A model generated the notes under the pieces. That model was not told where the DNA came from. It saw only the letters and a list, made by a program, of their open reading frames with translations, and ran no database searches. This document shows positions 15 to 61,446 of a stretch of 64,000 nt of DNA, one piece after another (positions within the stretch are counted from its first letter, which is position 1; every line of letters begins with the position of its first letter). Made by a program: the position numbers and the translations under genes. Origin of the DNA: a virus; IMG/VR virus record IMGVR_UViG_3300039308_000034, positions 16,752-80,751 of that record. The stretch is one strand, 5' to 3'.

Positions 15-2804
15 ATGTCTCAATTAAACAACCAAGAGTTAAACATCCTTGAAACGGGAACACCCGCATGGGTTAAGGCAGCATTAGAAACTAGATCTTC
101 GGATGATCTACCTCAAAACTCAGGTTCATCCTGTAGATCTTGTGAAGATCTAGATCAGACCCTCCAGCCCCAAAAAGCTCTATTCACAAACCTCACATCA
201 GCCTGGGTGAAGATTAACGCTAACCTGCTGAGAAAGCTTCAACAGGAATTGATTGATCACCCTGAACGGGCAGTCCGGCAGCATGATCCCGATCGCTGGC
301 ATCTTTACTGGCGTGGTGAGTACTTGGCGCTGCACAATTACGGCGAAACCGTTGAAATTATTGCTCATTACGATTGCTCGGTCACTTCGGTCGGCGGCAC
401 AATGACCCAATCGAAAGTTGAGCAGTTTATTCGAGACTGGCTAAAAGTTGACCCAACTGCCGAACCTGCTCATAACCTGATCGGGCAGTACGATATGACG
501 ACTCCCATTGGAGAGATTGCTATGCAGGTTGTCGCGGAGCGTAACGAGGAGGGACAACCGTTTCTGCTGTTTGAATTCTGCGGCATTCCCAAGCCCGTGA
601 ATTACCCTAACCCCAACACAGTGTTTATTCACCGAATGCCTGATGAGTTAGAAGGGATGGAGCCGACCTGCAACAGTCCATCAGGGTATGCCGAATTTTC
701 AGCACGGCAGATGCTGGCAGAGTTCATGGCAACGCTCGACCAAGAGGTTGAAGAGACTCTCCCCATTCTCCACAAAACACTGAAGCAGTCAGGAAAGCAG
801 AAGGAGCAACAGATCCAGGTTTGCCAGGAAATTCTTCGCCAAATCGAAGCCACAACTGTGGGTACATGGTGGGAGCCATTTGAAGCACTGCGACAGAAAC
901 CCTATTCAGCCGAGTTTATGCGATTGGTAGTTAAGGCAGCTACGCTGCGGAAACTAGAAAAGCTTGGAGTAGCAACTGCGATCGATCAACTCTTCAATGG
1001 GCAACGAGCATGGTATTCCGAGCAGAAAGACACCAGTGCACTGGCAACTAACCTTGAACTCAGCAATCCTCGTCCAGCGGTAATTAACGGAGCAGCAGGA
1101 ATTGCGTATGAAGTGGCGATCGTTCAGCCAGGACACCCTCAGCTTCGTGGCAGAGTAATTGAAGCTGGAGAAGCTGAAAGTATAGTTGAAGTTCCAGAGT
1201 TTGATCAGCCTGTTAAAGTATTCAACCAGTTTCTGGCACCGCTCCTGAGTGAAAAGAGACGCAAGCAAATTGAACGACTCCGCAAAGCTGCTGCATCCAA
1301 AAAATTGACCGATCGCTGTGATCATCGCTCGATTTCTGCCGCCTTAGTAGTAATTGCAAATGCCCTCGAAACCAATACCTGCCCAGAACTGCTGCAAAAA
1401 GTCTCAGCCCTCAGCCACGTCAAAGCCCTCCTGCTAGGAGAACCGGCTACTGCCGCCGCAAATAAGCCTGATCACACTGCAATTCAGTCAATGGGACTCG
1501 TCGATGTAAACGCTTTTGCCGCAGCCCGAAATGCCCTTGTTGAGTTAATGAAGCAGTCTGAAACTGCCAGCCAAAGAACGCCGACTGATCGCAGCACCCA
1601 AATCTACACGCTCGATGGAGATGTCTTGATCGGTACTGTTGAAACAGCGAATGAGCTTCGATCACTTCTTGTTGAAAATCAATTAACGCTGGATGAAGTT
1701 TGGGGTGTTCCTGAAGAGGCGTATGCAGTTTTAGAGCAAGCAGTAGGATCGATCGATTTTGGGAAACATCAGTCATCCTATGTTGTTAACGTCAAGTACA
1801 CCAAAGACTACGACACTTACATTGGTCGAGGGAACCCCATCTATCGGCTACCTCAGTCAAAATGGCACAATCCCTTCCAAATTGGCAAACATGGTAATCG
1901 TGTTGAGGTTCTTCAGAAATACGAAGCTCATTTATTAGGCAACGCTGAGTTAATGGCAGCCCTGCCGGAGTTATTTGGACAAACGATCGCCTGCTGGTGT
2001 GCTCAAAAAGGTGAACGGCTCACAGCAGACGACCCGCTCAAATGTCATGGACAAATCCTTCTCAAAGCTTTACGCGGTGACTATCAGCAACCCACACCAC
2101 CCTCAATCCAATATGCGGAAATCAAAACACTTCAGCCGATGCATGGGCTTTGCTTCCTGGCAGCTGGAGCCAATCAATACTGCGATCGTCCTGCACCCGG
2201 AATTACCCTTCAAGTTGATGATTGGGTTCTAGTTCATGACGTAGCAGAATCCGCCCGTCCGGGCATCGTCAGGGGCTTCATTCATGATGCAGATTATGAG
2301 GGACGCGACGGCAGTCCCAACAGCATCCTAGTGCAGCTAGAGGACGGCTCGCACATCATTCAACCTGCTGCCTGGATTGAACCCGCCGAACCAGGACGGG
2401 CGTATCTTGGCATTCGCAGTGGCGATCGGGTGCAAATTACTCAACGTCCTAGTCACATCGACCTAATTGAGTTTGAGCAATGGAGAGAGCGAATCGTTCA
2501 GCGAGTGAATTGGTTTAACGGCTTGTTTGCCGTACAGGTGCCTGGTCGCCCTGAACACAGCGTCCAGGACTACTCATTTAACCAAGTTCAACTTGTTTCA
2601 CCAATTACTCTAGAAGTCCGTGAAACGGACTATAGCACTGAAATCTCACCAGAAGCTGTCGTGCAAGTTACGGAATCCGATGAACCCTCATTAGCAGAAC
2701 TTCCTCCACCTAAAAAACGAGGACGTCCCCCAAGCCGCAGAACAACATTACTATTCAACTCGCTCTTTTCTAGGAGATTTTCTCATGCCTCAATTACCCC
2801 CTAA
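15..2804 (+). CDS. DUF4326-domain protein with C-terminal AT-hook
   Basis: A 929-residue protein. Residues about 588-690 match DUF4326: an IGRG...WHNPF segment, then CWC near residue 659 and CHG near 677. This cysteine/histidine-rich fold is common in phages and its activity is not established. A KKRGRPP AT-hook near residue 900 suggests binding to AT-rich DNA. The N-terminal 50 residues hold two copies of a 14-residue repeat (RSSDDL / RSCEDL) that is really a DNA iteron also found in the initiator gene at 44.8 kb. The middle (residues 60-580) is not recognised. The ATG at 15 has CGGAG nine bases upstream. The next gene overlaps its 3' end by 20 bases, so it heads a + operon. Role inferred only: DNA-associated accessory factor. 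Confidence 0.7.
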   Translation: MSQLNNQELNILETGTPAWVKAALETRSSDDLPQNSGSSCRSCEDLDQTLQPQKALFTNLTSAWVKINANLLRKLQQELIDHPERAVRQHDPDRWHLYWRGEYLALHNYGETVEIIAHYDCSVTSVGGTMTQSKVEQFIRDWLKVDPTAEPAHNLIGQYDMTTPIGEIAMQVVAERNEEGQPFLLFEFCGIPKPVNYPNPNTVFIHRMPDELEGMEPTCNSPSGYAEFSARQMLAEFMATLDQEVEETLPILHKTLKQSGKQKEQQIQVCQEILRQIEATTVGTWWEPFEALRQKPYSAEFMRLVVKAATLRKLEKLGVATAIDQLFNGQRAWYSEQKDTSALATNLELSNPRPAVINGAAGIAYEVAIVQPGHPQLRGRVIEAGEAESIVEVPEFDQPVKVFNQFLAPLLSEKRRKQIERLRKAAASKKLTDRCDHRSISAALVVIANALETNTCPELLQKVSALSHVKALLLGEPATAAANKPDHTAIQSMGLVDVNAFAAARNALVELMKQSETASQRTPTDRSTQIYTLDGDVLIGTVETANELRSLLVENQLTLDEVWGVPEEAYAVLEQAVGSIDFGKHQSSYVVNVKYTKDYDTYIGRGNPIYRLPQSKWHNPFQIGKHGNRVEVLQKYEAHLLGNAELMAALPELFGQTIACWCAQKGERLTADDPLKCHGQILLKALRGDYQQPTPPSIQYAEIKTLQPMHGLCFLAAGANQYCDRPAPGITLQVDDWVLVHDVAESARPGIVRGFIHDADYEGRDGSPNSILVQLEDGSHIIQPAAWIEPAEPGRAYLGIRSGDRVQITQRPSHIDLIEFEQWRERIVQRVNWFNGLFAVQVPGRPEHSVQDYSFNQVQLVSPITLEVRETDYSTEISPEAVVQVTESDEPSLAELPPPKKRGRPPSRRTTLLFNSLFSRRFSHASITP
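91..152. repeat. Two 19-bp iteron-like palindromes inside the first gene
   Basis: Two copies of TAGATC-N7-GATCTA begin at 92 and 134, exactly 42 bp apart. The first centre is TTCGGAT. The second is TTGTGAA and gives perfect arms TAGATCTT/AAGATCTA. The same unit with the same 42-bp phase recurs at 44803-44984. It may be an initiator-binding site. Confidence 0.7.
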
Positions 2805-4888: not shown

Positions 4889-6265
4889 ATGAAAACATTA
4901 GAATTTAAAATCTATCCCAACAAAACTCAGCAGCAAACGATCGATCGGTGGATTGAAACCCTCCGCTTAGTTTGGAACTGGGGGTTAGAACTCTTGATTG
5001 AACTTGATGCTTACAGTGCTCCCTACGTCGTCATGGTTAAACAAGAGGGAGAACTCAAAAAAACTTATCATCGTGCTCCCTGTTGTCCAATCGGATGGGA
5101 ATACCGCTGGATGAAAGGAAAACGATGGGAGTTTACCTCAGGAAAGCTAGACATTATAGAAGGGGCTAGCGACACTGATTGGGCTGCCATTCCTTACTCG
5201 CGTCGTGCTTCAAGGCGACCTTACCGAATGTTCTGCCCACTCATTCCTACAGGGCTGGACGATCGCATTTGGGAAGAACCCTCACCCTTTGCCTATAAAG
5301 AACCGCGCCTCGACAACCCCTCCAACTTCTCACTCGCCAAGTTCTTCGCTCACAAACGCCATCCAGATTGGCAGGCACTCAATGAAATCCCTGCTTGGTT
5401 TATTCGAGGAACCTGCCACAGCCTTGCTAATGCTTGGGACCGATATAAGTCTAAGAAAGGAGGACTTCCCCGGTTTAAGCGCAAGGGGGATGCGGTTGAC
5501 ACTCTAATTCACGAAGACGCCTCAAAGCTGCGAATCCGACGGGTTGATGAAAAAGGTCGAGAGGTGGCATATCTCCAGATTCCCAAGCTGGGCGAATTCA
5601 AAGTGAAATATTTTGCACAGGACTGGAATCAAGATGTTCCGGTGAAAGTGTTAAAGCTGTGCCGCCAGCCTGACGCTTATTATCTCCAGATGACAGGCAA
5701 TTTACCTGTCAAGCCACCCAAAGTCAGCACTAGAACGGCAGGATTGGCTTTGCCACAGGCACAAGGCATTTTGTATGTAGACGATCGCGGCAAGATGGTG
5801 GAGGCAATCCCTGAAGATCTAAAGCTGCTATTGCGCCTGGAAAAATTACAGCAGCAACTGGCACGCCAGGAGTATTTGTCGAAGAATTGGCATAAGACAA
5901 AAAACAAGATTGCGCGGCTGTATCGTCGAGCGAAGCTTCGGGCTAGAAATCACAATCATAAACTCAGTACGTTTGTCGTGCGGAAGTTTAATGAGATTGC
6001 AATTCAGGATGTAAAGGCAGGAGCCATCCCTAGCCCAGAACCAATTGTGGAGCACGTTGAACCGCCTAAATATGCGCCAAATGGTGCAACGCAGGTTTCG
6101 CTAATTAACCAGCGTCGTACTGCTATGCGAACTGGACAATTTGTTGCCTTGATTCAGCAAAAAGCTAAATCAGCCGGTAAAACAGTTATTAAAATAAAAC
6201 CTAAAAAGAATGCGAAGCAAACAAACCCCGCTAAGATAGCAGCTAGTATCAAACCCAAAGACTGA
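4889..6265 (+). CDS. TnpB/OrfB-family protein with inactivated RuvC nuclease
   Basis: A 458-residue member of the IS605 OrfB/TnpB family of RNA-guided nucleases. Seen: the typical N-terminus (LEFKIYPNKTQQQTIDRWI), the NAWDRYK...GGLPRFKRK segment, and RNHNHKLSTFVV, equivalent to the usual DFLHKLST helix. The catalytic positions are lost. The GIDxG motif reads GLALP (Ala287). The expected IxIEDL reads IAIQDV (Gln373). The protein ends after KAKSAGKTVIKIKPKK, with no CxxC zinc ribbon and no final RuvC Asp. The downstream DNA does not encode the missing part in any frame. About 100 residues (45-150) are inserted near the N-terminus. Known of the family: dead homologues can be kept as RNA-guided repressors (TldR), and Cas12k is another dead offshoot, but the N-terminus and size do not fit Cas12k. 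A DNA-binding, non-cutting role is inferred. Confidence 0.8.
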   Translation: MKTLEFKIYPNKTQQQTIDRWIETLRLVWNWGLELLIELDAYSAPYVVMVKQEGELKKTYHRAPCCPIGWEYRWMKGKRWEFTSGKLDIIEGASDTDWAAIPYSRRASRRPYRMFCPLIPTGLDDRIWEEPSPFAYKEPRLDNPSNFSLAKFFAHKRHPDWQALNEIPAWFIRGTCHSLANAWDRYKSKKGGLPRFKRKGDAVDTLIHEDASKLRIRRVDEKGREVAYLQIPKLGEFKVKYFAQDWNQDVPVKVLKLCRQPDAYYLQMTGNLPVKPPKVSTRTAGLALPQAQGILYVDDRGKMVEAIPEDLKLLLRLEKLQQQLARQEYLSKNWHKTKNKIARLYRRAKLRARNHNHKLSTFVVRKFNEIAIQDVKAGAIPSPEPIVEHVEPPKYAPNGATQVSLINQRRTAMRTGQFVALIQQKAKSAGKTVIKIKPKKNAKQTNPAKIAASIKPKD

Positions 6266-6501
6266 TACTCGCTCAGGGGTGGGTCTGGGCGTAATGAATG
6301 GGTAAGTCGCTCGCGCACCATTGTACAACCGAGGTAGGTGCTACCTCCGATCGTCCTAAGGCAGCACGCTGACGGCAAATCTGGAAAATCTTGTTTACCT
6401 GTTAGTAAACGTTACTGCATCGATCACACACTTTTCCCAAAAGAAGATCGCACTTCCAATTGACCTGACCTTATTCCGATCGCACTGTAGCGAGGCATAC
6501 G
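6266..6501 (+). ncRNA. Structured non-coding region after the TnpB-like gene; possible guide RNA
   Basis: No plausible gene lies here. The region runs from the TnpB-like stop to the end of the convergent sigma gene. It contains a hairpin GAGGTAG-GTG-CTACCTC at 6331-6347 and a second, GTTTAC-N6-GTAAAC, at 6393-6410, preceded by a G-rich stretch (6275-6292). TnpB omega-RNAs are known to span the 3' end of the gene and the adjacent non-coding DNA, with the guide at the 3' end. By position this is a candidate scaffold. It has not been matched to a known RNA family. Confidence 0.4.
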
Positions 6502-9155: not shown

Positions 9156-9487
9156 TAATCTAGTAAGCGATAGGGAGCGATCGAAAGCGTTTCACCACCA
9201 TTGACACCAGCTGAAGCAAAGAGCGTTAGGAAGCTCATGCCATCATCGTCCTCACTTGGCAAGCAAAGATGGAGGATTTGACCTGGAGCAGGGATGAAGG
9301 GCAAAGTAATAGTGGCGGAAGATTCTGCAATTCGTTTCAGGTGCTCGCGCTCGAATCGTTCATCTTCTGACAGATTGCCAGATAGGTAAGTGTTGAAATC
9401 AAATTGAGCAGGTAGCCACAGATCAACGTAAAACGTATAAATAGCAAAGCATACTGTCCTGGCAGGGCTAAGAGCGGTCTTGGACAT
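9155..9487 (-). CDS. Hypothetical protein, 110 aa
   Basis: Not recognised. The longer open frame starts at 9658, but the ATG at 9487 is preferred: AAGGAA lies about 10 bases upstream and the shorter version overlaps the thymidylate synthase gene by only 20 bases. The protein reads MSKTALSPARTVCFAIYTFYV ... GQILHLCLPSEDDDGMSFLTLFASAG. No membrane segment or motif is recognised. Confidence 0.55.
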   Translation of the reverse strand: MSKTALSPARTVCFAIYTFYVDLWLPAQFDFNTYLSGNLSEDERFEREHLKRIAESSATITLPFIPAPGQILHLCLPSEDDDGMSFLTLFASAGVNGGETLSIAPYRLLD

Positions 9488-10958
9488 AGGGTTTTCCTTG
9501 TTGAACTGCTTGATAAGCACGTTGCAGCTCCATTCCCAAGTAAGCTGCGTGATCAGGTTGAAGTCCTGGGGCATCTTGGATGATCGCCCGCACAATCTCC
9601 TGGGGTTTACCTCGATAGGATGCAACCGTTGAACCTTTCGGATAACTCCGCTCGACAAGCAGTTCCTCCCCGGAGACCTGAATCAGATAATCCCCACAAG
9701 GATCAAAATATCGTTTTGTTTCTGCGCGGATGAGCTGCTGGTAGTGAGTTTTTACAATGGCGTCTGCTGCTTCAAAGCTCTCATCGTAAAGATGGGCTGA
9801 TTCACTCAAAATAATGAGTGCTCCTAGCTTGAAGGTTTGTCCCGATCGCCTCGTTACCTCATCCCAAACATGTCTCTGAAGGGCTCGCAGCCCCATCGCA
9901 TTAGCGACCCAAGCTGAGAACATATCATTTGAGCGAAACACAGCGGTTAAGCTAAAAACGCCATCTAGAACGCGTACCCAAATGTGATTAAGGCAAGGCG
10001 GGTTTTTGGCATCAGGATCATGTTGAACGTCCCAAAGGCTCATTACTGCTCTGGCAGAATTTGGATCATCACAAAGCTTCTGAATTACCTGCTCAATCTG
10101 ATCTACTCCGAACTCCGACCGCAAACGCTGCCCATAGGTATATTTCACTCCGTCTGAACCTGTAGCATCTGCTAGAATTTGTGCTAGATAATCTCGGATA
10201 AAAGCACGATCAACGGGTAAGTAATTTGGCTCTGGGAAATCAAATCCATCCGGCTCATCCGTTACCACTGCCATCACATCAATCAATTCCTGCCACTGTC
10301 CATCATGTTGGTTCGGACGAACAACACCTGTTGTCCGAATCCGATGGAGGATTTTTACCCAAGCTTGAGCGATTGTCTCTCCTTCAATTCGATGTCCGTA
10401 TAGCTGTCCTGGCAGAATGTTAGAGGCAAGTTGCCGGACTGGGAACTTCAAGCGGCTACGACCCGTTTCTGGCTTTTCTGGAAACATACAAGCTAGTGCA
10501 TGAACCCGCTCGATCGCTGCTCCACGCTCGTCATGATAAAAACAAAGAATTGATTGCCGCAGCGTTTCTAGTGCCTCAGCAGTAATCTCAAAATCAATAA
10601 AGCCCTTGATTTCCGATCGAATCAGCCAGGTTGGATGTCCGGCATCATCTATGCCTGCCTCAAATCCATGTACAAAAAAATCATGGAAGCAGCGGCAACT
10701 ACCTGCATTGCTATCTTCTGTTGTTGCAGCTATCAAAACAACGTATTGAACTTGTGGATTAAGCAGCAGGTTTCGCACCAAAAACGAAATTCCGCGTGCT
10801 GCGCTATAAAGCTGCCCAATTACCGCATACTCATGGGATTCAAGGCGTTTAGCGATCGTTTCTGAGATCGTCCAACCCGTAACGACAACTGTATGCCCAC
10901 TACCATACAGAAGTTGACCGGGCTTATATTCTGCGAAATAAATTCCTGTTGTTTCCAT
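9468..10958 (-). CDS. Thymidylate synthase with N-terminal MtrA-like domain
   Basis: A 496-residue protein. The C-terminal half is ThyA-type: NPPCLNHIWVRV carries the catalytic Cys322, and FRSNDMFSAWVANAMGL matches the R-S-N-D nucleotide-binding motif. It would make dTMP from dUMP with methylene-tetrahydrofolate. The N-terminal 180 residues (HTVVVTGWTISETIAKRL ... GSCRCFHDFFVHGFEAGIDD) resemble the MtrA-like domain fused to thymidylate synthases in some archaea and cyanobacteria. The start at 10958 is chosen because AGGAGG lies upstream and the previous gene's TAG ends two bases before it. With the reductase at 12.1 kb it supplies DNA precursors. Confidence 0.85.
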   Translation of the reverse strand: METTGIYFAEYKPGQLLYGSGHTVVVTGWTISETIAKRLESHEYAVIGQLYSAARGISFLVRNLLLNPQVQYVVLIAATTEDSNAGSCRCFHDFFVHGFEAGIDDAGHPTWLIRSEIKGFIDFEITAEALETLRQSILCFYHDERGAAIERVHALACMFPEKPETGRSRLKFPVRQLASNILPGQLYGHRIEGETIAQAWVKILHRIRTTGVVRPNQHDGQWQELIDVMAVVTDEPDGFDFPEPNYLPVDRAFIRDYLAQILADATGSDGVKYTYGQRLRSEFGVDQIEQVIQKLCDDPNSARAVMSLWDVQHDPDAKNPPCLNHIWVRVLDGVFSLTAVFRSNDMFSAWVANAMGLRALQRHVWDEVTRRSGQTFKLGALIILSESAHLYDESFEAADAIVKTHYQQLIRAETKRYFDPCGDYLIQVSGEELLVERSYPKGSTVASYRGKPQEIVRAIIQDAPGLQPDHAAYLGMELQRAYQAVQQGKPYVQDRS

Positions 10959-10959
10959 G

Positions 10960-11301
10960 CTACGCCGCCTCCTGATGTTCCCAATGCTGGAAGTGGGGTT
11001 TCGGCGTGTACCACCAATCTTGTTCCTCTGATGTAAGCGCCATCCAATGAAGCGTAGTGACTGTTTCTGGCTTCTGATATCCACCCAGCAGTATTACCGA
11101 ATAACTGGGCGATTTAATACAGGCACGATCGGGTACAAACCTTTTACCGATTCGGTTCCAGCTTGGCATCTTGCAGCGAAACTGAATTGAGCAGTGAGGG
11201 TAGGGTAATTCTTCTCGATCGTACAACCGACAAACAGGACCCACTATCCGATACACAAACGTTTTGCCTGGCGACAGGACAGTATCGCCCTCATTCAGCA
11301 C
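10960..11301 (-). CDS. Hypothetical protein, 113 aa
   Basis: Not recognised. GTG 11301 is taken as start: GGAGG lies 8-9 bases upstream and it overlaps the NrdR-like gene by 11 bases, whereas the longer frame from 11379 would overlap by 89. Residues [21 protein letters not shown] look like a small beta-barrel. [16 protein letters not shown] is basic and [13 protein letters not shown] lies near the end. Its place between thymidylate synthase and the NrdR-like gene suggests a link to nucleotide supply, without evidence from the protein itself. Confidence 0.5.
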
Positions 11302-26000: not shown

Positions 26001-29000
26001 ATGACTGAAGAAAACAAGATTGAACGATACGGCATAAGCGCTGAATACTCCTTTGATGCGTCCGAAAATACGTTTGCAACGATGAAACAAGTCGTTGCGG
26101 GATTGCAGACGATCGAGGATGCGGTCAAGCAAACGAGCAGCGCAATTAAGCAGTCAGGGTTGGCGCAAAACCTGCGTCAGATGGCAAACCAGGCGGGGGG
26201 AGCAATCGGACAAGCTACCCAACAGATGCAGCAAATGGGGCAGGGCTCCAAGCAAACCGGAAATCAGCTTCAGCAGCTTGCTCAAGAATTTCGGGCACTT
26301 CGAGCTGAGAGTAAAGCGATCGATCTCAGCGAGATTGCTGACCCACAACAGTTTAAGAAAGCGGAGACCGGGCTAAATGAATACATCCGGCAGCTAGAGC
26401 AGCTCAAAAAACAGATTGACACGACCACTCCTCAAGGTCGGCAAATGGCAGCGCAGATCCAGCGCGAACAGATGGTTGCCAGTCGCCAGATCGGCAAAAT
26501 TAACCAGCAGGCACAGTCTTCTTCTCAGGATGCGGCACGCCAACTCGGTAACTTAGGCAAGGAGTTTCGAGCCCTGCGGGCAGAAGCACAAAATATTGAT
26601 TTCGGTGATCTTGATGATCCCAATCAGTTTAAGCAAGCGACTCAGCAGATTGAGAAATATATTACCGAGCTGAAGAAGCTAGAGGCACAGGTTGATAAAA
26701 CCTCACCGGAGGGTCGAACCCTGGCAGCTCAAATGCAACGATCCCAGACGATTGCCGGTAACCGACTCGACCGCGCCAACCTGGAACGACAATCAGCGAA
26801 AGCACAAGAGCGGCAAGGAATGGCAGCCGGAGTTGCCGGAGCCGGAGCTGCTGTCATGTTGCCAATGATTGGACTGGGGAAAGAAGCCATTTCCACAGTT
26901 AGCGAATTCAGCGACCAAATGATGGAGGTAAAAGCCGTCCTCGATCCGAAGGATTGGGGAATGTTGGATGCAATTCGCCAAAAGGCAAAAGATTTAGGAG
27001 CCAGCACTCGTTACTCTGCTTCAGAAGCCGCATCTGGTTTTGTACTGCTTGCTCAAGCAGGTTACGACGTTGACAAGCAGATGAAGGCGATCGACGGCAC
27101 TCTGAGTCTTGCTGCGGCTGGCAATCTACAACTGGCTCGTGCCACTGAAATTACGGTTAGCACCCTTGGTCAATTTCAGATAGATGCTACCAAGGCGACC
27201 CATGTTGCCAACGTATTAGCGAAAGCAGCGGCAATGGGTCAACTCGATGTCAATGACATGGGTGAATCCTTGAAATATGCCGGAGGTTCAGCAAAACGAG
27301 CAAACGTTAGCTTTGAGCAAACCTCCGCAATGTTAGCGCTGCTATCTGAAGGCGGACTAAAGGGTGAAATGGCAGGCAGTAACTTGGCATCCATGATGGA
27401 CTCCATTACTGCTCCCAGTAGCACTGCTTCTAAAGCCCTGAGACAACTTGGCATTATCACCAAGGATGCACGAGGAAACTTACTGCCATTCGATCGGATA
27501 TTAGGACAACTAAACAACAGGCTCAGCAAAATGGGTTCGGGTCGTCGAGCCAGTTTTGAGAGTGCCATCTTTGGGACTACTGGTGGGCGCGCAGCCTCAA
27601 TTCTGTTGCCGCGACTCAGTAAACTCGGGTCTGCAACCAGTGAGATTATGAATACTGCCGACCAGGGGATCGGGTCAGCAGCCGAGCAAGCTCAAATCAT
27701 GGAATCTGATATTGGTGGGGCTTTCCGAAGCTTGCAGTCTGCCATGCAGGGCGCGTTTATCGAAATTGGAGAACGGATTGCTCCTGCCGTTAAGGCAGCG
27801 ACGCAAGCCATTACAGGATTACTCAAAACCTTTATCAAACTTCCGGAGCCAATCAAGACTGCCATTATCTTGACGGGAGCTATTGTTACAGGACTGGCAA
27901 CGCTGGCAGTTGTACTAGGGACCGTTGGCATTGCCTTCTTTGGTTTTCAAGCGGCAATGGCTCAGGCGGCGATCGGGATGAGTGCAATGGCAGGGGCAGG
28001 AGTGCCGCTGACTGGGTTCTTTGCAACCGTAATGCAAGCTTTCTCAACGGGTGGCATCATTACTGGATTTGCTGGGTTAGGAACAAGCATTAGTACAGCT
28101 GCAGCAGCGCTGGGCGCATTCATTACAGGACCCGTTGGACTGTTGCTCGTTGCTGGAGCCGCGATCGTCGGCTTATTGGAAATCCTCACTCCTGGTTTTA
28201 ATGTCCTGGGCACTGTTGTCGGGGTGGCACTCAGTCCGATCGCTTTTACATTTGGGTTGGTCAGAGGAGCACTCCAGGGATTATGGGTTGCTCTTAAGCC
28301 TGTCGTCACTGAGTTCTCCGGCATGAGCGGAGACGGGAAATATCTCTCTGATGTGATGCAGACGATCGCCAAGGTTCTGAGCAATGTTGCCGGAGTTGGA
28401 AAAGTTGCTGGAAAGGTTCTGGGTTTTCTAGTTGGGGCTGGCATTGCCACTCCATTGAAATGGCTAATCAAAGGGTTTAAGTTTCTTATTGGGATGTTGC
28501 GCGGTGTGGGCATGGTTGCCGGGACGATCGCCGCTCCCTTTGTGTGGGCAATTCAGCAAATTGGTAGAGCATGGCAGGGCTTCGTGGACTGGTTCCAGAA
28601 AATGCCACTGGTTAAGTTTGCGCTCGATATTGCCCAGAAGTTAATTAATGCCCTAAATCATAATCCCACCGAGCGCATCCCTGAAGCTTGGGATAAAGCA
28701 GTGCAGCGAATTCAGGGGCTATTTGAATGGCTCGGACGTGCCGGACAAGCAACAGCAGAGGTTTTGTCCTACCTGCTCGACCCTTCCCGCATCTTCAAAG
28801 GCATTTTGCGTGGACTGATTACCCTGGTTCAAAATACGATTTCCACCATTCAGGACAGTGGCATCGGGCAGGTGCTCGACAAGATTGGATTTGATGCACC
28901 GATCGATGGTTTACAGGCAGGCTTAGAAAAGCTTAAAGCGATGACTGAGGACAAGCCATTACAGGTTGAAGTCATCCCCAAACTGGACAGCACGATTCAG

Positions 29001-32000
29001 TCTGTTGCAGAAACCAAACCTGTTTCTCTAGCAGTTCAGCCAGTCGTAGATAAGCCTGATCTCACCTCAGTTCAGTCCATCAAACCGAGCGCGGTTCCGA
29101 TTCAACCCACTCTGAGCAAAACTCCGGCACTGGGAATGCTGCCAACCCCAACAGCGGCTCCCACGCTCCAAACTCCTAACTTGAGCAATTTCCTGTCTGC
29201 ACTCACTACCCAACTTGAGACTGCCAAAACGATCGCCGCTCAGACCTTTGGTGAAATCAAGCAATCTTGGCTAGATAACTGGAGTTTCTTGCAACGGTCT
29301 GGCACAACCGATCTCAGCCAACTATTTGCACCAGGAATTGATACCCTCAAAGCTCAACTCTCAACTGTACGGCAAGACTTTCAGTCCTTTGCTCAAGAAA
29401 CGATCGCCGCCATTGGCAGTATGGACTGGGAAAAAGCCAAGCAATCAGCACAGAACTTTGGCACAACACTTAGTGGAGCTGCTCAAAGTGCAGGCAAGGC
29501 AATCGGTGGATTAACCCTAAGCACCATAGCCCTTGGTGTGTTTTCGCTAACTTCCCTCAGCCCGCTAGTGCTAATTCTGGGCGGCATTGGCTTGACAGCA
29601 CTCGCTATTGCAACTGATTTTTTGGGCATCCGCACCGCCATCATGGGTGTGATGAAAATGATTGGCGGACTGATCAATGTGGTCAGGGGTGCGATCGAAG
29701 TGTTTGTTGCACTACTTACCACTGCCACTAATACAGTGCAGGGCATCCTGAAAGTTTTGGATGGGATTCTGCCTGCCCTTCGGGGCGATTTCTCCCAAAT
29801 GCAAGCTGGATGGAATCAAATTACGCAAGGATTCCAGGCAGGTGCAATCGAAATCTCACAGGCATTTGGGCGAATGGGTCGCGGCATTGGGCAAGTTTTT
29901 GAAGGCGCGTTTCAAGTTGTACATGGCATTGGGGAAGGCATTTTTAGAGCAATTACTGGAACAGCACAGGCTATCAAGCTAATCTTCCAGGGCATTGGCG
30001 CAACCATTAACGGTACTGCCAAACTGATCAGTTTAATTGGAGAAGGATTTCGGGCAATTCCTAGCGTCGTTGGAGAAGTTGGGCAGAAGATTCAGGCAAA
30101 GTGGCAGGCACTCAACAGTTGGATCAGTAATCTCAATTTGGTTCCCGATCTCAGCAGCTTCAGCAAGGTGGGCGACCGAATCAGCGGAGTGCTTAGCAGT
30201 GCGAAGACCCTGATTCAGACGGGAGTTGAGCAGATTCATTCTATTTGGAACGGTCTCAAGCTGAATCTACCTCATCTTGATCTCAGTCCAATACTGGGAC
30301 TGCCCGATCGCATTCAGGGCATTGTGCAGCAAGCAGCTGGTGTTGTTCAAAGTGCAATTGCCCGGATTCAGCAAATCTGGCAAACTCTAACCTTCCATTT
30401 CCCTACGCTCGATCTCAGCCACCTAACCGCGCTGCCCAACCGCATTCAAGGCGTTGTGCAGCAAGCAACAGATGTTGTTCAAAGTGCGATTGCCCGGATT
30501 CAGCAGATCTGGCAAACTCTAACCTTCCATCTCCCTACGCTCGATCTCAGCCACCTAACCGCACTGCCCGATCGCATTCAAGGCATTATTACCACCATTC
30601 GCAGCACTTTCGATGCTGGCACAACTCAAATTCGATCGACCTGGGACACGATCAGTCACCTTGCTCTGCCAGGGCTAAAGACCGTAATCGATACAGTCAA
30701 AGGTTTGCCGCCAATCTTCGAAGGAGCGATCGAGCGGATCAAGTCGCTCTGGTCTGGGGTGGGCGACAAAATTAGTAGCGTGTTGGGGTTTGTGCGAGGC
30801 AAATCAAAACAGGTTGGAGAAGAAATTACGCATAACCTGTCTGAAAACTCTCCGGGCCCGACCTTTCAGATTCGGATGAAATGGGCAATGACCGCCGAAT
30901 CGGTGCAAGAACGAATGGTCAGCATTGCTCAACAAGCCAAACTGAGCGGACAGCAAATTGCTGATCGGGTTGTGGGTGGCTTTGAACAGATTCAGGTTGG
31001 CGCTAAGGCGAAGCTATCAGGTGTCAAGCAGCAGATTAGTTCAGCATTGAACGGTAAAGGCGTTGGAGCAGTTGGGCGCAGCTTTAGTTCAGTGGGAATG
31101 GCACTCAGCAATATTTCGCCACAGCTCGCAGCACCGCTGTTTGTGATGTCGGACTTGATCGACACTTCCCAAACGCTTTCTGAAACCTTACCTGAAGCCC
31201 AAAAATTCTTTACCGGGCTTCTCCCAAAAGTGAAAGGATTGGGTGGAGCTGTTGGCGGACTGGTGCCCAAACTGGCAGGGATGTTGAGTGGGCTAATTCC
31301 AATTTTGACCAGCCTCAGCACAACTGCAATAACTGCACTTGGGGCAGTCGTCACACCACTGCTACCGATTATTGGCACGATCGCTGCGATTGGCATCGGC
31401 GTGATTCTGCTTCGCAAAGCATGGCAGAAAAACTTTTTGGGCATTCGATCGCTTGTTGAAACCATCGGTTCTGCAATTCAATCCCTATTTGCAGGCATCC
31501 TCAAATTTGCTGATCGCTTCCTCAATCCCCTTCGGCTCATTCAAGGTCTGTTCTCTCTGATTCGCCAGGGACTGAGCGGGCTGGGTAAGTTGTTCATTCC
31601 CCTTATGGGAATTACTACGGCAATTCAGGGAGGTTGGCAAGGCTTCAAGGATTGGTTTAACAGCCTGTTCAATGGATTGCCGATTAAAGCAGCTGATGCC
31701 AGCAAGAAGGTACAGCAAGCACTCTACACACCAACCAAAAAAGTACCCCCTCCATGGGAAGCTGCGGTCCAGAAAGTTAAAGAGCAGATTGGCTCTCTCA
31801 CTGCAATGGGGCAATCGATCGACCTCCCCCAAATGACTAGCCCCACAATTCAACCCACCATTGCTCCAATTCCCACCATTACTAGCCCTACGATTCAGCC
31901 CACAATTGCCCCTGTTTCTCAGATTACAGCACCCCCTATCCTCGCTTCGACTGCTCCTGGACTTGCCACCATTCCACCTCAAATTGCCCAGATTAAAACC

Positions 32001-35000
32001 GGAATGGAAGAGCTAGGGCAGACATGGCAAGCCGAAACTGACCAGATGCAACAGCAGGGTATCGCTGCCTTTACCTCTGTCTTCAGTCCACTTGCCGATC
32101 GTGCCAAGACTGCCTTTGGGCAGCTACATCAGCGAGTCGCAGAATTCGTGGCACAGGTGCAAGCATTGATGTCCAACGTAACGCTTGATAACTTGAACGA
32201 GGGAATTCAGGGCATTGGCAAGCAGTTGAAGGCATCCGTTCAACAGGCAGGCAATAGTTTAAACGCTGCAACCCTCTCTGCAATTGCTTTCGGTGTAACC
32301 TCACTGCTTTCTCTGAGCCCAATCATTCTGATTCTGGGAGCGATCGGTTTAGGAGCACTGGCGATTGCCACAAACTTCCTGGGAGTCAGGACTGCCATTT
32401 TAGGCGTGTTCAAAATTGTTACAGGCTTGTTTAATACGGTGCGAGGTGGGTTGGAAACCATGACCGCCCTGATTACGACTGTCATTAATGCAGCCCGCAG
32501 CATGGCTCAAATCCTGGGAGGCATTCCCGCTGCTTTCCGAGGTGACCCCTCGCAGATGCAAGCCGGATTTGGTTCGCTAGTTGAGTCATTCCAAACCGGA
32601 GCCAGCCAGATCAAGCAAGCTTTCAATCGCATTGGACGCGGAGTCGGGCAAATCTTTGAAGGAGCCTACCAGGTTGTCAGCGGCATTGTTGATGGACTCA
32701 TTCGACTATTCCAGGGGTTAGGTCAAGCGATCGAGTTGGTATTTAAGGGAGCCAGTGCAATCGTTACGGGGTTGGGTAGAACATTTCAGTTAGTGGGAGA
32801 TGGGATTCAATCACTGCCGGGAATCGTGACCACTGCTGGGGATAAGCTGAAAGCAACCTGGCAGAACGTCACAGCCGCAGTTCACAACTTACCCTTCTTA
32901 CCCAATCTGCAAGATCTACAGCAGCTCCCCGATCGCGTGGCTGGCATCTTCAACATTATTAAAGAGCAAGTACAAAAAGGGATTACTCAAATCCAGTCGG
33001 CTTGGCAAAGCTGGAACCTGCATTTGCCAGAAATCAATCTAAGCAGTTTGCAGCCGGTGGTAGAACGAACCAAAGCCACTGCTCAACAAATTCTAGGATT
33101 TTTCCAGAACCTCACCTTAAGACTGCCTGAACTGAACTTGAGCAACCTGCTTAACGTACCAGAGCGCATTAGCAGCACGATCGCTCAAATTCAGGCAACC
33201 TGGACAAAGCTCAATCTCCCTTTCCCTGAAATTAAGCTGAGTGCTCTGCAAACAATCCCCGATCGCGTTCACTCGCTGATATCGCAGGTACAGAACTACT
33301 GGAATAGTCTGGCTCTCAAATTTCCTTTACCTGACCTGAGCAGTCTGGAAGGAGTCAGCGATCGAGTACGTGGGGTCATCAGCGCAACTCAAGAGGTAAT
33401 CGCAGCCGGAATTGCTCAGATCCGATCGATCTGGCAAACCCTTACCACGCTCGATGATGTGCCAATCCTGCAAGGATTCGTTGATTTTGCCAAAACCCTT
33501 CCCGACATTTTTCAGGCAGCGATCGAGCAAATTAAGTCGCTGTGGGGTGGTTTGGGTGACAAGGTAAAAAACGTATTCGGCTTCATGCGCGGCAAGTCGA
33601 AAGAAACCGGGCAGGAGATGATTAGCAACCTTGCTGAAAACTCTCCGGGTCCGACATTTCAGATTCGCCAAAAGTGGCAGATGACCGCCGAACGGATTCA
33701 GGCGTATTTGTCAGGTGTTGCCGAACATGCCCAAGTCACAGGTCAGCAGATTGCAACTCAAATTACTGCCGGAACCCAGCAAGCCGCGACCGCTGCCAAA
33801 ACAAAATTAGGCGCGATCGGGCAAAGCCTGAATCAGGCATTGGGCGGCAAGGGTGTTTACGCAATGGGACGCAGCTTCAGTTCAGTCGGCATGGTATTGA
33901 GCAACTTTGCACCTCAAGCTGCCGCTCCGCTGTTCATGCTGTCTGATCTAGTCGATACATCGCAGACTCTCTCCGAAACACTGCCTGAAACTCAAAAGTT
34001 CTTTACTGGGCTATTGCCCAAGGTGAAGGGACTGGGGGGAGCTGTTGGCGGACTGTTACCCAAATTAGGGGGACTGGTCAGTGGCATAATTCCGCTCTTT
34101 GGTAGCTTGGGCACTGCTGCGACAACCGCGCTGGCTGCAATTGCGGGTCCACTGTTGCCGATTATTGCCGGGATTGCTGCGGTGATTGCAGTGGGCTATT
34201 TGCTATACCAGGCATTCAAACAAAACTTCCTTGGCATTCGATCGCTCGTGCAGGGTGTTGGTAAAGCCTTGACAGGCACATTCAAGCTCATTGGGGCGGT
34301 CGTTCAGGGAATTGCTGATTTGATTGGCAATACGTTTGGTGCAGCGATTCAAACGGTAGTGCGAGTTGCCAGTTCAATCGGCTCTTTCCTAATTGCTCCC
34401 TTTGTTGCTGCTAAAAACCAGATTCAGAGTGCATGGCAAGGATTTCAGCAATGGTTTAGCGGACTGATGGGCGGCTTGCCTAATCTGGCTGCCGAAGCAG
34501 GCAAGCGGATTATTGGCTTCTTGAATCACAATCCAACCATCGTGATTCCTGACTCCTGGGAAGGCGCGGTTCAACGCATCAGTGGTGATCTCTCAACGTT
34601 ACCTGGAGTAGCGCAGGATGTGGGTCAGCAAATGGTAGGAGCAATTCAGCCCGATACCATTCCGAATCAACTCAGTGACTCGATCGGTGCATTTGGCGAA
34701 ACTGCCTCAACTGTAGCTGGGCAAGTCAGCAATGGCTTTAAAGGCATGACCCTGGCATCAGTCGCTTTTGGTGTTTCCTCGCTCACCTCCCTTGCCCCGA
34801 TCGCGCTGATCATGGCTGGCATTGCTTTAGCAGCTCTGGCAGTTGCAACGAATTTCCTCGGCATTCGCACCATTCTCGGCGGACTATGGCGCGTCATTCA
34901 GGGAGTGGTAGAGATTGCAGTCTCTGGGTTTAAGGCAGTTTTACAGGTCCTCAAAGGACTGTTCCAGATTCTGGGCAGCGTTCCGGCAGCCCTGATGGGT

Positions 35001-44363: not shown

Positions 44364-46060
44364 CGGCTAGTCATCTAAACATTGTGCCACTCCAAAGAAA
44401 ACGTACTCCCGACATTCCAACTGCTTTTGAGATGGGATTGCTAGGCATAGGTACTGTTGCCTTTCGGATTTTCTACGATTTGAGAGAACTCGCCAAGCCT
44501 ATGGTCGATCGCCAGGGGCAAGAACGGCTAGGGATAAAAATTGGCTTGGCTGCAATTGCTAAACGCTGTATTCTGCCCGATCGCCCGAATGCCTCTGCTG
44601 CTGTTCTCCGGCGCGCAGTTTTTCATGGCATTGCTGAGATTGAAGCCTGTGGTTTAATCCACATCGAAAAATCAACTACTGCCTCTAAAGAAGCAAATTG
44701 CTATTTTTTCTCAGAACGAACTGAGTGGTGCAAACGTCCAGAGAACTTTGCTTCCAGCAATATCCGCCAGGGGCGACCCAAGGGGATAACCAAGAAGAAA
44801 ACTAGATCTTCAGATGATCTACTGCAAAATTCGAGCTTGCCCCCTAGATCACCCGAAGATCTAGTGCAAATTAACGATTTAGAAGCTAGATCTTCGGATG
44901 ATCTAGTCGTGCAAAATGGACGAAACCCGCATTCTTCCGTTGAGAGTCTACAAAAAATCTCTGAAGCTAGATCTTCGGATGATCACTTTAAATATGTATA
45001 TGTAGATCAGGATGTAGAAGTAACTAAAGATCTTGATTTAAACCAGAGTATTGAAGAAAGAAATACTTTATTGCGTAGACTCAGCGCGATCGACGCCTCT
45101 ACTGGCTCTATACCAGTTGAACTACCTTCAAACGTTGAGTTGCATTTCAACCCTGAATTAATTTCACCTGTTCAGCCCAATACTGTAGAGCCACAAAGCC
45201 GATCGGCTCAGACTCTTTCTGGCGGGACGAATTCTACGAAGGTGAAAAAAACAAAACGACAGATAGACAAGGAGAAATATCTCCTACCGGATACAGGGGT
45301 CAATAAGGTCGCCGCACTGCCCAATGTTTCGCCGGAAGGGGTTGCTATTTTTGAAGCCTGGTTTCCCCAGTGGAAGGAGCGCTATCGATCGGTGCGAAAC
45401 CGCTATGCGGATCAGACAATGGCAGCGATTCACTTCGCTCGGATGGTTCAGATCCAATTGGAGGAGGGGGAGTTTGATTCCGAAGCGGAACTCTATCAAG
45501 CGTTCTGGGAGCGGTGTTTGGTCTGGAACAAGCAGACGGATGACAAAATTCTACGGGGCGATCGGTGTATCGAGATGCCTGACGTAGATGGGTTTTTATT
45601 GGGCAGGCATGGCGGTGAACCCTACTGGAAGCCCTGTATCCCCGAATCAGAGCCGCCAATCCCGCATGCTGAGCGATTTACTGCCGTTTGGCAGCAAGCT
45701 TACGCCGAGTACCTTTCCTTGCAGCAGGGAGGCTGTGATGTGTCGCCCGGTTCCCATGATGAGGCAAAACGAGTTTGGGCAATGCTCTACGTCGATGAAC
45801 CACCTTGTGACATTGAAGCATTGATCAAGTTTTATTTTCAGCACAAACGTGAGCGGCTGGGCCGGAGCGGCAATATTGCAATTAGCAAATTCAGTAATTT
45901 GATTCGCCCTGAAAGTCTGAAGTATGTGCGGGATGTTATGCATCAAAAGCAACCAAGTGAGTCCAACGAGGCAAGACCCAAAACAGAATCTGAGCTGATG
46001 TTAGAAGCCGCATTGGAGGAACTGCGAAAACAGCCGATCGGAGGTGTAACTTATGGTTAA
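44357..46060 (+). CDS. Candidate replication initiator / replisome organizer
   Basis: 567 residues from ATG 44357 (GGAGG upstream). The N-terminal 120 residues look like a winged-helix initiator domain (FEMGLLGIGTVAFRIFYDLRELA, IGLAAIAKRC, AVLRRAVFHGIAEIEACGLIHI). Residues about 145-210 are the 14-residue repeats encoded by the iterons at 44803-44984. The C-terminal 270 residues (VAIFEAWFPQWKERYRS ... DIEALIKFYFQHKRERL) would bind the helicase. dnaB starts in an eight-base overlap. The arrangement matches lambda O with origin repeats inside the gene. Function is inferred from context and layout. Confidence 0.65.
   Translation: MVAASHLNIVPLQRKRTPDIPTAFEMGLLGIGTVAFRIFYDLRELAKPMVDRQGQERLGIKIGLAAIAKRCILPDRPNASAAVLRRAVFHGIAEIEACGLIHIEKSTTASKEANCYFFSERTEWCKRPENFASSNIRQGRPKGITKKKTRSSDDLLQNSSLPPRSPEDLVQINDLEARSSDDLVVQNGRNPHSSVESLQKISEARSSDDHFKYVYVDQDVEVTKDLDLNQSIEERNTLLRRLSAIDASTGSIPVELPSNVELHFNPELISPVQPNTVEPQSRSAQTLSGGTNSTKVKKTKRQIDKEKYLLPDTGVNKVAALPNVSPEGVAIFEAWFPQWKERYRSVRNRYADQTMAAIHFARMVQIQLEEGEFDSEAELYQAFWERCLVWNKQTDDKILRGDRCIEMPDVDGFLLGRHGGEPYWKPCIPESEPPIPHAERFTAVWQQAYAEYLSLQQGGCDVSPGSHDEAKRVWAMLYVDEPPCDIEALIKFYFQHKRERLGRSGNIAISKFSNLIRPESLKYVRDVMHQKQPSESNEARPKTESELMLEAALEELRKQPIGGVTYG
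44803..44984. repeat. Iteron array, 42-bp phase, inside the initiator gene (candidate origin)
   Basis: TAGATC-N7-GATCTA units begin at 44803, 44845 (inverted), 44887 and 44968 (last bases changed), with a degenerate unit near 44929. The spacing is 42 bp, four helical turns, with one step of 39. Two further units lie at 92 and 134. Replication origins of the lambda type have such arrays inside the initiator gene. Confidence 0.75.
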
Positions 46061-60873: not shown

Positions 60874-61446
60874 ATGACCCTTCACGCTCCATTTGGTTCT
60901 CTTAAATCGCTCTCTCAAACTTCCGCAAACCGCAAACCAGAAAGAGCAAAATATACCTTTACCCGTCCAGCTGATACTACTGCTTATGCCGCAGGCGATT
61001 TTCTCTATCCTGCTGTTCCAGGAGCTGGCTCACAAATTAAAGCAATTCCCTTTCTAGGAGCCGTTGCCAACGCTGGACAGGAAACGCTTCTGCTCAGTGC
61101 CACTCTGATTGATCATGCGAGTGGAGCTTCTGCCGCTAACATCGATCTGCTCCTGTTTAGTGCACCCCTGACAACGGCACCCGTCGATAATGCTGCCAGC
61201 ACGCCTGGAATTGTTGCAGCTGATCTGGAAAATCTGATCGATGTCATTTCATTCCCAGATTCGATCGCCATTGCTGCAGGCCCAGCCCGCATCTACTCAG
61301 TCTCACCCAATAAGATTATTGCAACAGCTGGTAGCTCTAAGGATTTGTATGCTGTGCCGATCGTGCGGAATGCCTATACGCCAACCAGTGGTGGCAAGTT
61401 TACCTTCATTTTGGGACTGCTACCGCGCGATTTGGGACTGTTTTAG
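60874..61446 (+). CDS. Capsid decoration-like protein, 190 aa
   Basis: Beta-rich protein (KYTFTRPADTTAYAAGDFLYPAV, ETLLLSATLIDHASGASAANIDLLLFSAPL, GGKFTFILGLLPRDLGLF). Its size, position and fold pattern suit a head decoration or head-closure protein, but no specific family is certain. The terminator-like GGGG ... CCCC plus T-run at 61481-61507 ends the capsid operon. Confidence 0.55.
   Translation: MTLHAPFGSLKSLSQTSANRKPERAKYTFTRPADTTAYAAGDFLYPAVPGAGSQIKAIPFLGAVANAGQETLLLSATLIDHASGASAANIDLLLFSAPLTTAPVDNAASTPGIVAADLENLIDVISFPDSIAIAAGPARIYSVSPNKIIATAGSSKDLYAVPIVRNAYTPTSGGKFTFILGLLPRDLGLF

What the first reader, a model, noticed from the sequence alone, without database searches (positions are those of the whole stretch)
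4889..6265. A nuclease-dead TnpB-family protein in a phage-like element
All RuvC active-site positions are lost: GLALP replaces GIDxG (Ala287), IAIQDV replaces IxIEDL (Gln373), and the zinc ribbon with the last Asp is absent. The rest of the fold is well kept over 458 residues. This is what known exapted TnpB proteins (TldR-type RNA-guided repressors) look like, not what a decaying transposase does. A dead, intact TnpB in a cyanobacterial phage-plasmid could be an RNA-guided regulator.
Basis: partly seen in the sequence, partly recalled or inferred. Interest (0 to 1): 0.75.

Follow-up and report, generated by a model that had tools for sequence, protein, structure and literature searches.

The report
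Nuclease-dead CRISPR effector in a cyanophage
A phage-like genome that probably infects cyanobacteria carries a relative of a small CRISPR enzyme that has lost its DNA-cutting centre but kept its fold and the structured RNA beside its gene, so it probably uses a guide RNA to sit on DNA and block genes rather than cut them.

Summary
The gene is real (4889-6265, 458 aa, no stops) and lacks the RuvC triad: Asp→Ala287, Glu→Gln373, and the zinc ribbon with the third Asp is gone. It is not a TnpB/TldR from a transposon. Its closest family is C2c8, the type V-U2 CRISPR effector of cyanobacteria and cyanophages (NCBIfam 262 bits; guided TnpB 86). Among about 40 relatives the dead proteins group together (support 78-86%) beside active, array-bearing C2c8s: this record, other phage contigs, a Gloeobacter plasmid, and Chroococcidiopsis, Chlorogloea and Gloeocapsa. 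Dead pairs evolve under strong purifying selection (dN/dS 0.06-0.09, like active ones). C2c8 loci carry a scaffold RNA at the gene's 3' end, whose anti-repeat pairs with the locus's own CRISPR repeat (permutation p 6e-5). A covariance model built only from two other dead loci has its best hit in the whole window at 6267-6354, just past this gene's stop codon (23.7 bits, E 0.002; next 13 bits). The window has no CRISPR array; a single degenerate repeat and guide is possible but unproven. Best reading: an RNA-guided DNA-binding protein that does not cut, working like TldR or Cas12m, in a new dead branch of C2c8. RNA binding and targets are untested.

The parts
4889..6265 (+). Nuclease-dead C2c8-like protein, 458 aa (HTH N-terminus, RuvC core without catalytic D and E, no zinc ribbon; basic C-terminal tail ending IAASIKPKD)
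   Evidence: C-terminal tail shared with L055 and L064
6267..6354 (+). Scaffold RNA (tracrRNA/omegaRNA-like) starting just after the stop codon
   Evidence: best covariance-model hit in 64 kb, both strands, 23.7 bits, E 0.002; model built without the window
6270..6291 (+). Stem S1 CGCTCAGG/TCTGGGCG of the scaffold
6297..6322 (+). Stem S2 AATGG..CCATT (AACTC..GAGTT in L055, AACCC..GGGTT in L064)
6331..6347 (+). Stem S4, perfect 7-bp hairpin with 3-nt loop, GAGGTAG-GTG-CTACCTC
   Evidence: only 13 such hairpins in the 80.7-kb record
6351..6375 (+). Candidate anti-repeat (TCGTC, 6351-6355) and degenerate repeat (GACGG, 6371-6375): weak, inferred
   Evidence: position fits the family pattern but the helix has only 5 pairs
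6380..6399 (+). Candidate guide TCTGGAAAATCTTGTTTACC after GGCAAA: speculative
   Evidence: inferred from repeat ends GGCAAG/TTGCAAG in relatives; the longest self-match of the intergenic stretch (13 nt, 6379-6391 = 61223-61235) begins one base before it

Best explanation
The gene encodes a nuclease-dead offshoot of the small type V effector C2c8 (V-U2). Its 3' flank is transcribed as a structured scaffold RNA (stems S1, S2, S4). The protein binds this RNA together with a guide, finds a matching DNA site, and occupies it without cutting, most likely blocking transcription. Shown here: loss of the catalytic residues, the fold by sequence and model, membership in a clade of dead relatives under purifying selection, and the conserved scaffold sequence and structure. 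Inferred: its transcription, RNA binding, DNA binding, where the guide comes from, repression, and the target.
For: C2c8 is the best profile, over 446 of 457 positions. All three catalytic elements are lost in register with active relatives. Dead members group together next to an active, array-bearing sister. dN/dS is 0.06-0.09 in two dead pairs and 0.08-0.13 in active pairs; further dead comparisons have saturated synonymous sites with few amino-acid changes. The scaffold has 8 compensatory pairs between L055 and L064, against 0-1 in slid controls, and the model's best hit is directly behind the window gene. The family's anti-repeat pairs with its own repeats. Dead relatives keep RNA modules: Gloeobacter pGMOR1 has scaffold plus 8 repeats; L064 has scaffold plus 2 exact repeats.
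Against: The window has no CRISPR array and no certain guide. The scaffold hit rests on a two-sequence model with rough E-values, and stem S3 is missing in the window. Folding of the window RNA alone is no better than shuffled sequence. The closest relative is only about 43% identical, so selection on this very gene could not be measured. Two of the nearest relatives are damaged: L054 lacks its N-terminus and any scaffold hit at the right place, and L064 is frameshifted. No target was found with confidence.
Confidence: 0.68

Rival explanations
1. Cas12m-like silencing of competing phages or plasmids: the dead effector uses spacers (its own former array, an array elsewhere, or host arrays) to block genes of rival elements rather than to regulate its own host or phage. 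This is a rival about purpose; the binding mechanism is the same as in the best explanation.
For: Dead relatives on the Gloeobacter plasmid and in L064 carry short arrays. The L064 spacer matches a dead C2c8 gene (its own) at 24 of 32 positions, shuffled maximum 21, which would fit targeting of a related phage's copy. Cas12m does this on plasmids (PMC11656645).
Against: No array in the 80.7-kb record. No convincing protospacer for the Gloeobacter spacers in phage or plasmid collections.
Confidence: 0.35
2. Anti-CRISPR decoy: the dead effector competes with active host or rival C2c8 systems for their guide RNAs or target sites.
For: Active C2c8 systems occur in cyanobacteria and their phages. 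A phage-encoded RuvC-dead Cas9 has been proposed to act this way (PMC12669027).
Against: The scaffold and anti-repeat differ between loci, and the dead loci keep their own RNA parts rather than relying on foreign ones.
Confidence: 0.12
3. Decaying relic: nuclease lost, array lost, gene drifting.
For: No array; S3 stem missing; one nearby relative is truncated and one frameshifted.
Against: 458-codon ORF intact; conserved C-terminal tail up to the stop; purifying selection in dead relatives; scaffold stems kept through sequence change.
Confidence: 0.13
4. TldR proper: a transposon TnpB that died independently and was exapted by the phage.
For: Same logic: dead RuvC, adjacent RNA, phage context; TldRs include phage-borne regulators (PMC13418256).
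Against: Profile and tree place it inside C2c8, not with TnpB; relatives have CRISPR arrays; no transposase.
Confidence: 0.05

Closest known systems
C2c8, type V-U2 (NCBIfam NF038192), e.g. Aphanizomenon phage CL131 (PMC6293099) and Microcystis NIES-2481
   Same: Full-length sequence homology; cyanobacterial, phage or plasmid setting; scaffold RNA at the 3' end of the gene
   Different: Catalytic triad and zinc ribbon lost; score 262 below the curated 350; no array beside the gene
Cas12m (type V-M, formerly V-U1)
   Same: RuvC-inactive small Cas12 on mobile elements; known to silence by binding (PMC10442227, PMC11656645)
   Different: Different lineage; Cas12m has arrays, a single crRNA, and an altered (HDD) site instead of a partly deleted one
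TldR (TnpB-like nuclease-dead repressors)
   Same: Dead TnpB fold, adjacent guide RNA, some carried by phages, probable regulation
   Different: Derived from transposon TnpB, not from a CRISPR effector; guide and promoter target are known for TldR, not here
Cas12k (type V-K CAST effector)
   Same: Naturally dead Cas12, described from the cyanobacterium Scytonema
   Different: Cas12k works with tnsB, tnsC and tniQ; none was seen among the window proteins scanned

Membership tests
C2c8 / type V-U2 CRISPR-Cas | Profile score at or above the curated cut-off (350 bits) | tested here: not met
   262 bits over 446/457 positions; still the best family by far
C2c8 / type V-U2 CRISPR-Cas | Phylogenetic place within C2c8 | tested here: met
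   Nested beside active array-bearing C2c8 (97-99% support with L015 and the dead group), apart from the TnpB rows
C2c8 / type V-U2 CRISPR-Cas | CRISPR array next to the effector gene | tested here: not met
   No array in the window or the rest of the record
C2c8 / type V-U2 CRISPR-Cas | Intact RuvC D-E-D | tested here: not met
   Ala287, Gln373, third Asp deleted
TldR | Dead RuvC in a TnpB-fold protein | tested here: met
TldR | Descent from a transposon TnpB rather than a CRISPR effector | tested here: not met
   Nested in C2c8; TldR sequences themselves were not in the tree
TldR | Guide RNA encoded next to the gene | tested here: inconclusive
   Scaffold found; guide only a candidate
TldR | Guide matches a promoter and represses it | not testable with these tools
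   Only a 13-nt match inside a coding region of the same record; no host genome known
Cas12m-like interference by binding | Guide-directed DNA binding without cleavage | not testable with these tools
   Needs biochemistry
Type V-K CAST (Cas12k) | Tn7-like genes tnsB, tnsC, tniQ beside it | tested here: not met
   None among the window proteins scanned; not every ORF of the record was scanned

The most novel reading that the evidence does not exclude
A CRISPR effector lineage (C2c8) lost its nuclease and its array and became, in cyanophages, a single-guide RNA-directed regulator that acts on phage genes, its own or a relative's: a TldR-like function reached from a CRISPR-Cas system instead of from a transposon.
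Probability: 0.3. Interest if true: 0.8.

Novelty: new variant of a known kind. Interest (0 to 1): 0.58.

Why it matters
RuvC loss in Cas12 has been described for V-C, V-K, V-M, V-O, V-P and Cas12b3 (PMC12669027), but I found no report for V-U2/C2c8 in the open-access library searched, and its function was called unknown in 2021 (PMC7889808). A maintained dead branch on cyanophages and plasmids would be another independent turn from cutting to binding, and would show the path from CRISPR effector to single-guide regulator in stages: active with array, dead with array, dead with mini-array or solo repeat, dead with scaffold only. The scaffold with anti-repeat found here also gives V-U2 systems a candidate guide-RNA design that can be tested directly.

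Tried and rejected
CRISPR array in the window or the rest of the record: none. Close relatives in viral contigs with window-only, L055-only, Gloeobacter-only or dead-clade queries: none. Targets of solo guides in Chlorogloea and Gloeocapsa genomes and of the Chroococcidiopsis guide in plasmids: nothing convincing. Protospacers for the Gloeobacter array: none convincing. The candidate window guide as an 18-mer in viral contigs gave 9 scattered hits, uninformative. A blind helix search over whole 3' regions gave only p 0.016; limiting it to the 16 nt after stem S4 gave p 6e-5, a choice made after seeing several of the pairs. Thermodynamic folding of the window RNA alone is not significant. IS200/IS605 Y1 transposase in the record: absent. 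Rfam: no hit.

Full report
What is there. The window lies in an 80,751-bp virus record. ORF 4889-6265 is intact, 458 aa. Pfam sees HTH_OrfB_IS605 and OrfB_IS605. NCBIfam ranks C2c8, the type V-U2 CRISPR effector, first with 262 bits over almost the whole profile, below its 350-bit cut-off; the guided-TnpB family scores 86. The AF2 model, of moderate confidence, matches TnpB, Cas12p, Cas12f, Cas12k and Cas12m structures.

Loss of the active site. Aligned with relatives from a cyanophage (CL131), Microcystis, Gloeobacter and Chroococcidiopsis and then with about 40 family members, the window has Ala287 for Asp, Gln373 for Glu, and a deleted zinc ribbon with the third Asp. Active relatives keep all of these. 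Other proteins are similarly damaged: Gloeobacter morelensis pGMOR1 (L004), two Chroococcidiopsis plasmids (L005, L007), Chlorogloea (L008), Gloeocapsa (L009), and contigs L054, L055 and L064. All lack the zinc ribbon and third Asp; the other substitutions differ (Asp to Ala, Ser or Cys; L004 keeps the first Asp, L054 the Glu). This suggests that the C-terminal deletion came first, which is inference.

Phylogeny. In a 42-row tree the dead proteins form one side of a branch (86/67), beside L015, an active C2c8 with a 5-repeat array on a viral contig. With a reduced set and one more relative the support is 78/47. Two dead subclades are firm: window with L055 and Gloeobacter (97/95), and the Chroococcidiopsis-type group (100/100). 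One loss is likelier than two but not proven.

Selection. dN/dS is 0.06 for L005-L007 and 0.086 for L008-L009; active pairs give 0.08-0.13. For L055-L064 synonymous sites are saturated while amino acids are 72-76% identical. The window gene itself has no relative close enough. L064 is frameshifted and L054 lacks its N-terminus, so decay also occurs in this group.

The RNA. In C2c8 loci the stretch over or just past the 3' end of the gene folds into hairpins ending in a 6-7-bp hairpin with a 3-nt loop (S4), clear in L015 and L008. Right after S4 comes an anti-repeat that pairs with the 3' part of the locus's own CRISPR repeat: CCAATCACAT with ATGTGATTGG in L016, CAATTAACC with GGTTAATTG in L011, CAACAAC with GTTGTTG in L064, CAACAAT with ATTGTTG in L055. 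Over 8 loci the own-partner scores exceed permuted partners with p 6e-5; the 16-nt limit was set after seeing several pairs. The CL131 paper reported no tracrRNA around its locus (PMC6293099), and a 2024 review table appears to list C2c8 without one (PMC11641405). I read these segments as the missing tracrRNA-like part.

The same RNA at the window gene. L055 and L064 share a 108-column scaffold with 8 compensatory pairs; slid controls give 0-1. A covariance model from these two sequences alone, searched over the whole window on both strands without filters, has its best hit at 6267-6354 on the + strand, one base past the stop codon (23.7 bits, E 0.002; the next hit has 13 bits). Its best hits in the Gloeobacter locus (15.4 bits) and in L078 (10.9 bits) also fall at the expected place; in L015 and L054's contig they do not. 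In the window S1, S2 and S4 are present and S3 is missing. The protein's last residues (KIAASIKPKD) match those of L055 (SIAKAIKPVL) and L064 (SIAKSIKPKL), so gene end and RNA start are in register.

Guide. Active relatives with arrays have 5-71 repeats (a few have no array in the DNA held). Dead ones have 8 (Gloeobacter), 2 (L064), a few diverged copies (L055), solo or paired degenerate repeats (Chroococcidiopsis group) or none (window). A possible degenerate repeat ends GGCAAA at 6379, and the longest match of the 236-nt intergenic stretch to the rest of the record (13 nt, ATCTGGAAAATCT, also at 61223 inside ORF 60874-61446) begins at that repeat's last base, one base before the predicted guide start. 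A 13-nt match somewhere in the stretch is expected by chance; its falling there is only suggestive. In L064 the spacer resembles its own C2c8 gene (24 of 32 nt, shuffled maximum 21).

Setting. The window carries ParA/ParB, DnaB, DnaN, a sigma factor, a thymidylate-synthase-like protein, a ribonucleotide reductase, terminase small subunit and tail genes. L054 lies beside phage head genes and L055 beside a weakly tape-measure-like gene. So this dead subclade is mostly phage-borne. No Y1 transposase is in the record. That the host is a cyanobacterium is inferred from the relatives.

Mechanism. The most likely reading is RNA-guided DNA binding without cleavage, as shown for Cas12m (PMC10442227) and TldR (PMC13418256), with repression as the effect. 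Whether it regulates phage or host genes or silences competitors cannot be told from these data.

Noticed in passing
L003:9330-9650 and other C2c8 loci (L011, L015, L016, L020): Active V-U2 loci, including published phage CL131, carry a structured RNA with an anti-repeat matching their own CRISPR repeat, although the CL131 paper reported no tracrRNA.
   Followed up: partly
L064 (bases about 2247-2286 versus 1341-1380 of the reverse complement): The spacer between two exact repeats beside a frameshifted dead C2c8 gene resembles that same gene (18 nt exact, 24 of 32 in all).
   Followed up: partly
window 91-153 and 44802-44984: A palindromic element (CTAGATCTTCGGATGATCTAG-like) recurs at two distant places, 7 matches against 0.13 expected; function unknown.
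   Followed up: no
window 26001-37973: A 3,990-aa ORF with a 132-bp tandem repeat inside (30299-30587), next to the terminase small subunit gene.
   Followed up: no
window 9468-11084: Thymidylate-synthase-like protein with a C-terminal DUF4346 pterin-binding domain, near a ribonucleotide reductase gene, with an ORF bearing an NrdR-like zinc ribbon between them.
   Followed up: no
window 15-2804 and L006:4069-4410: A DUF4326 domain lies within a few genes of C2c8 both here and on the Microcystis NIES-2481 plasmid.
   Followed up: no
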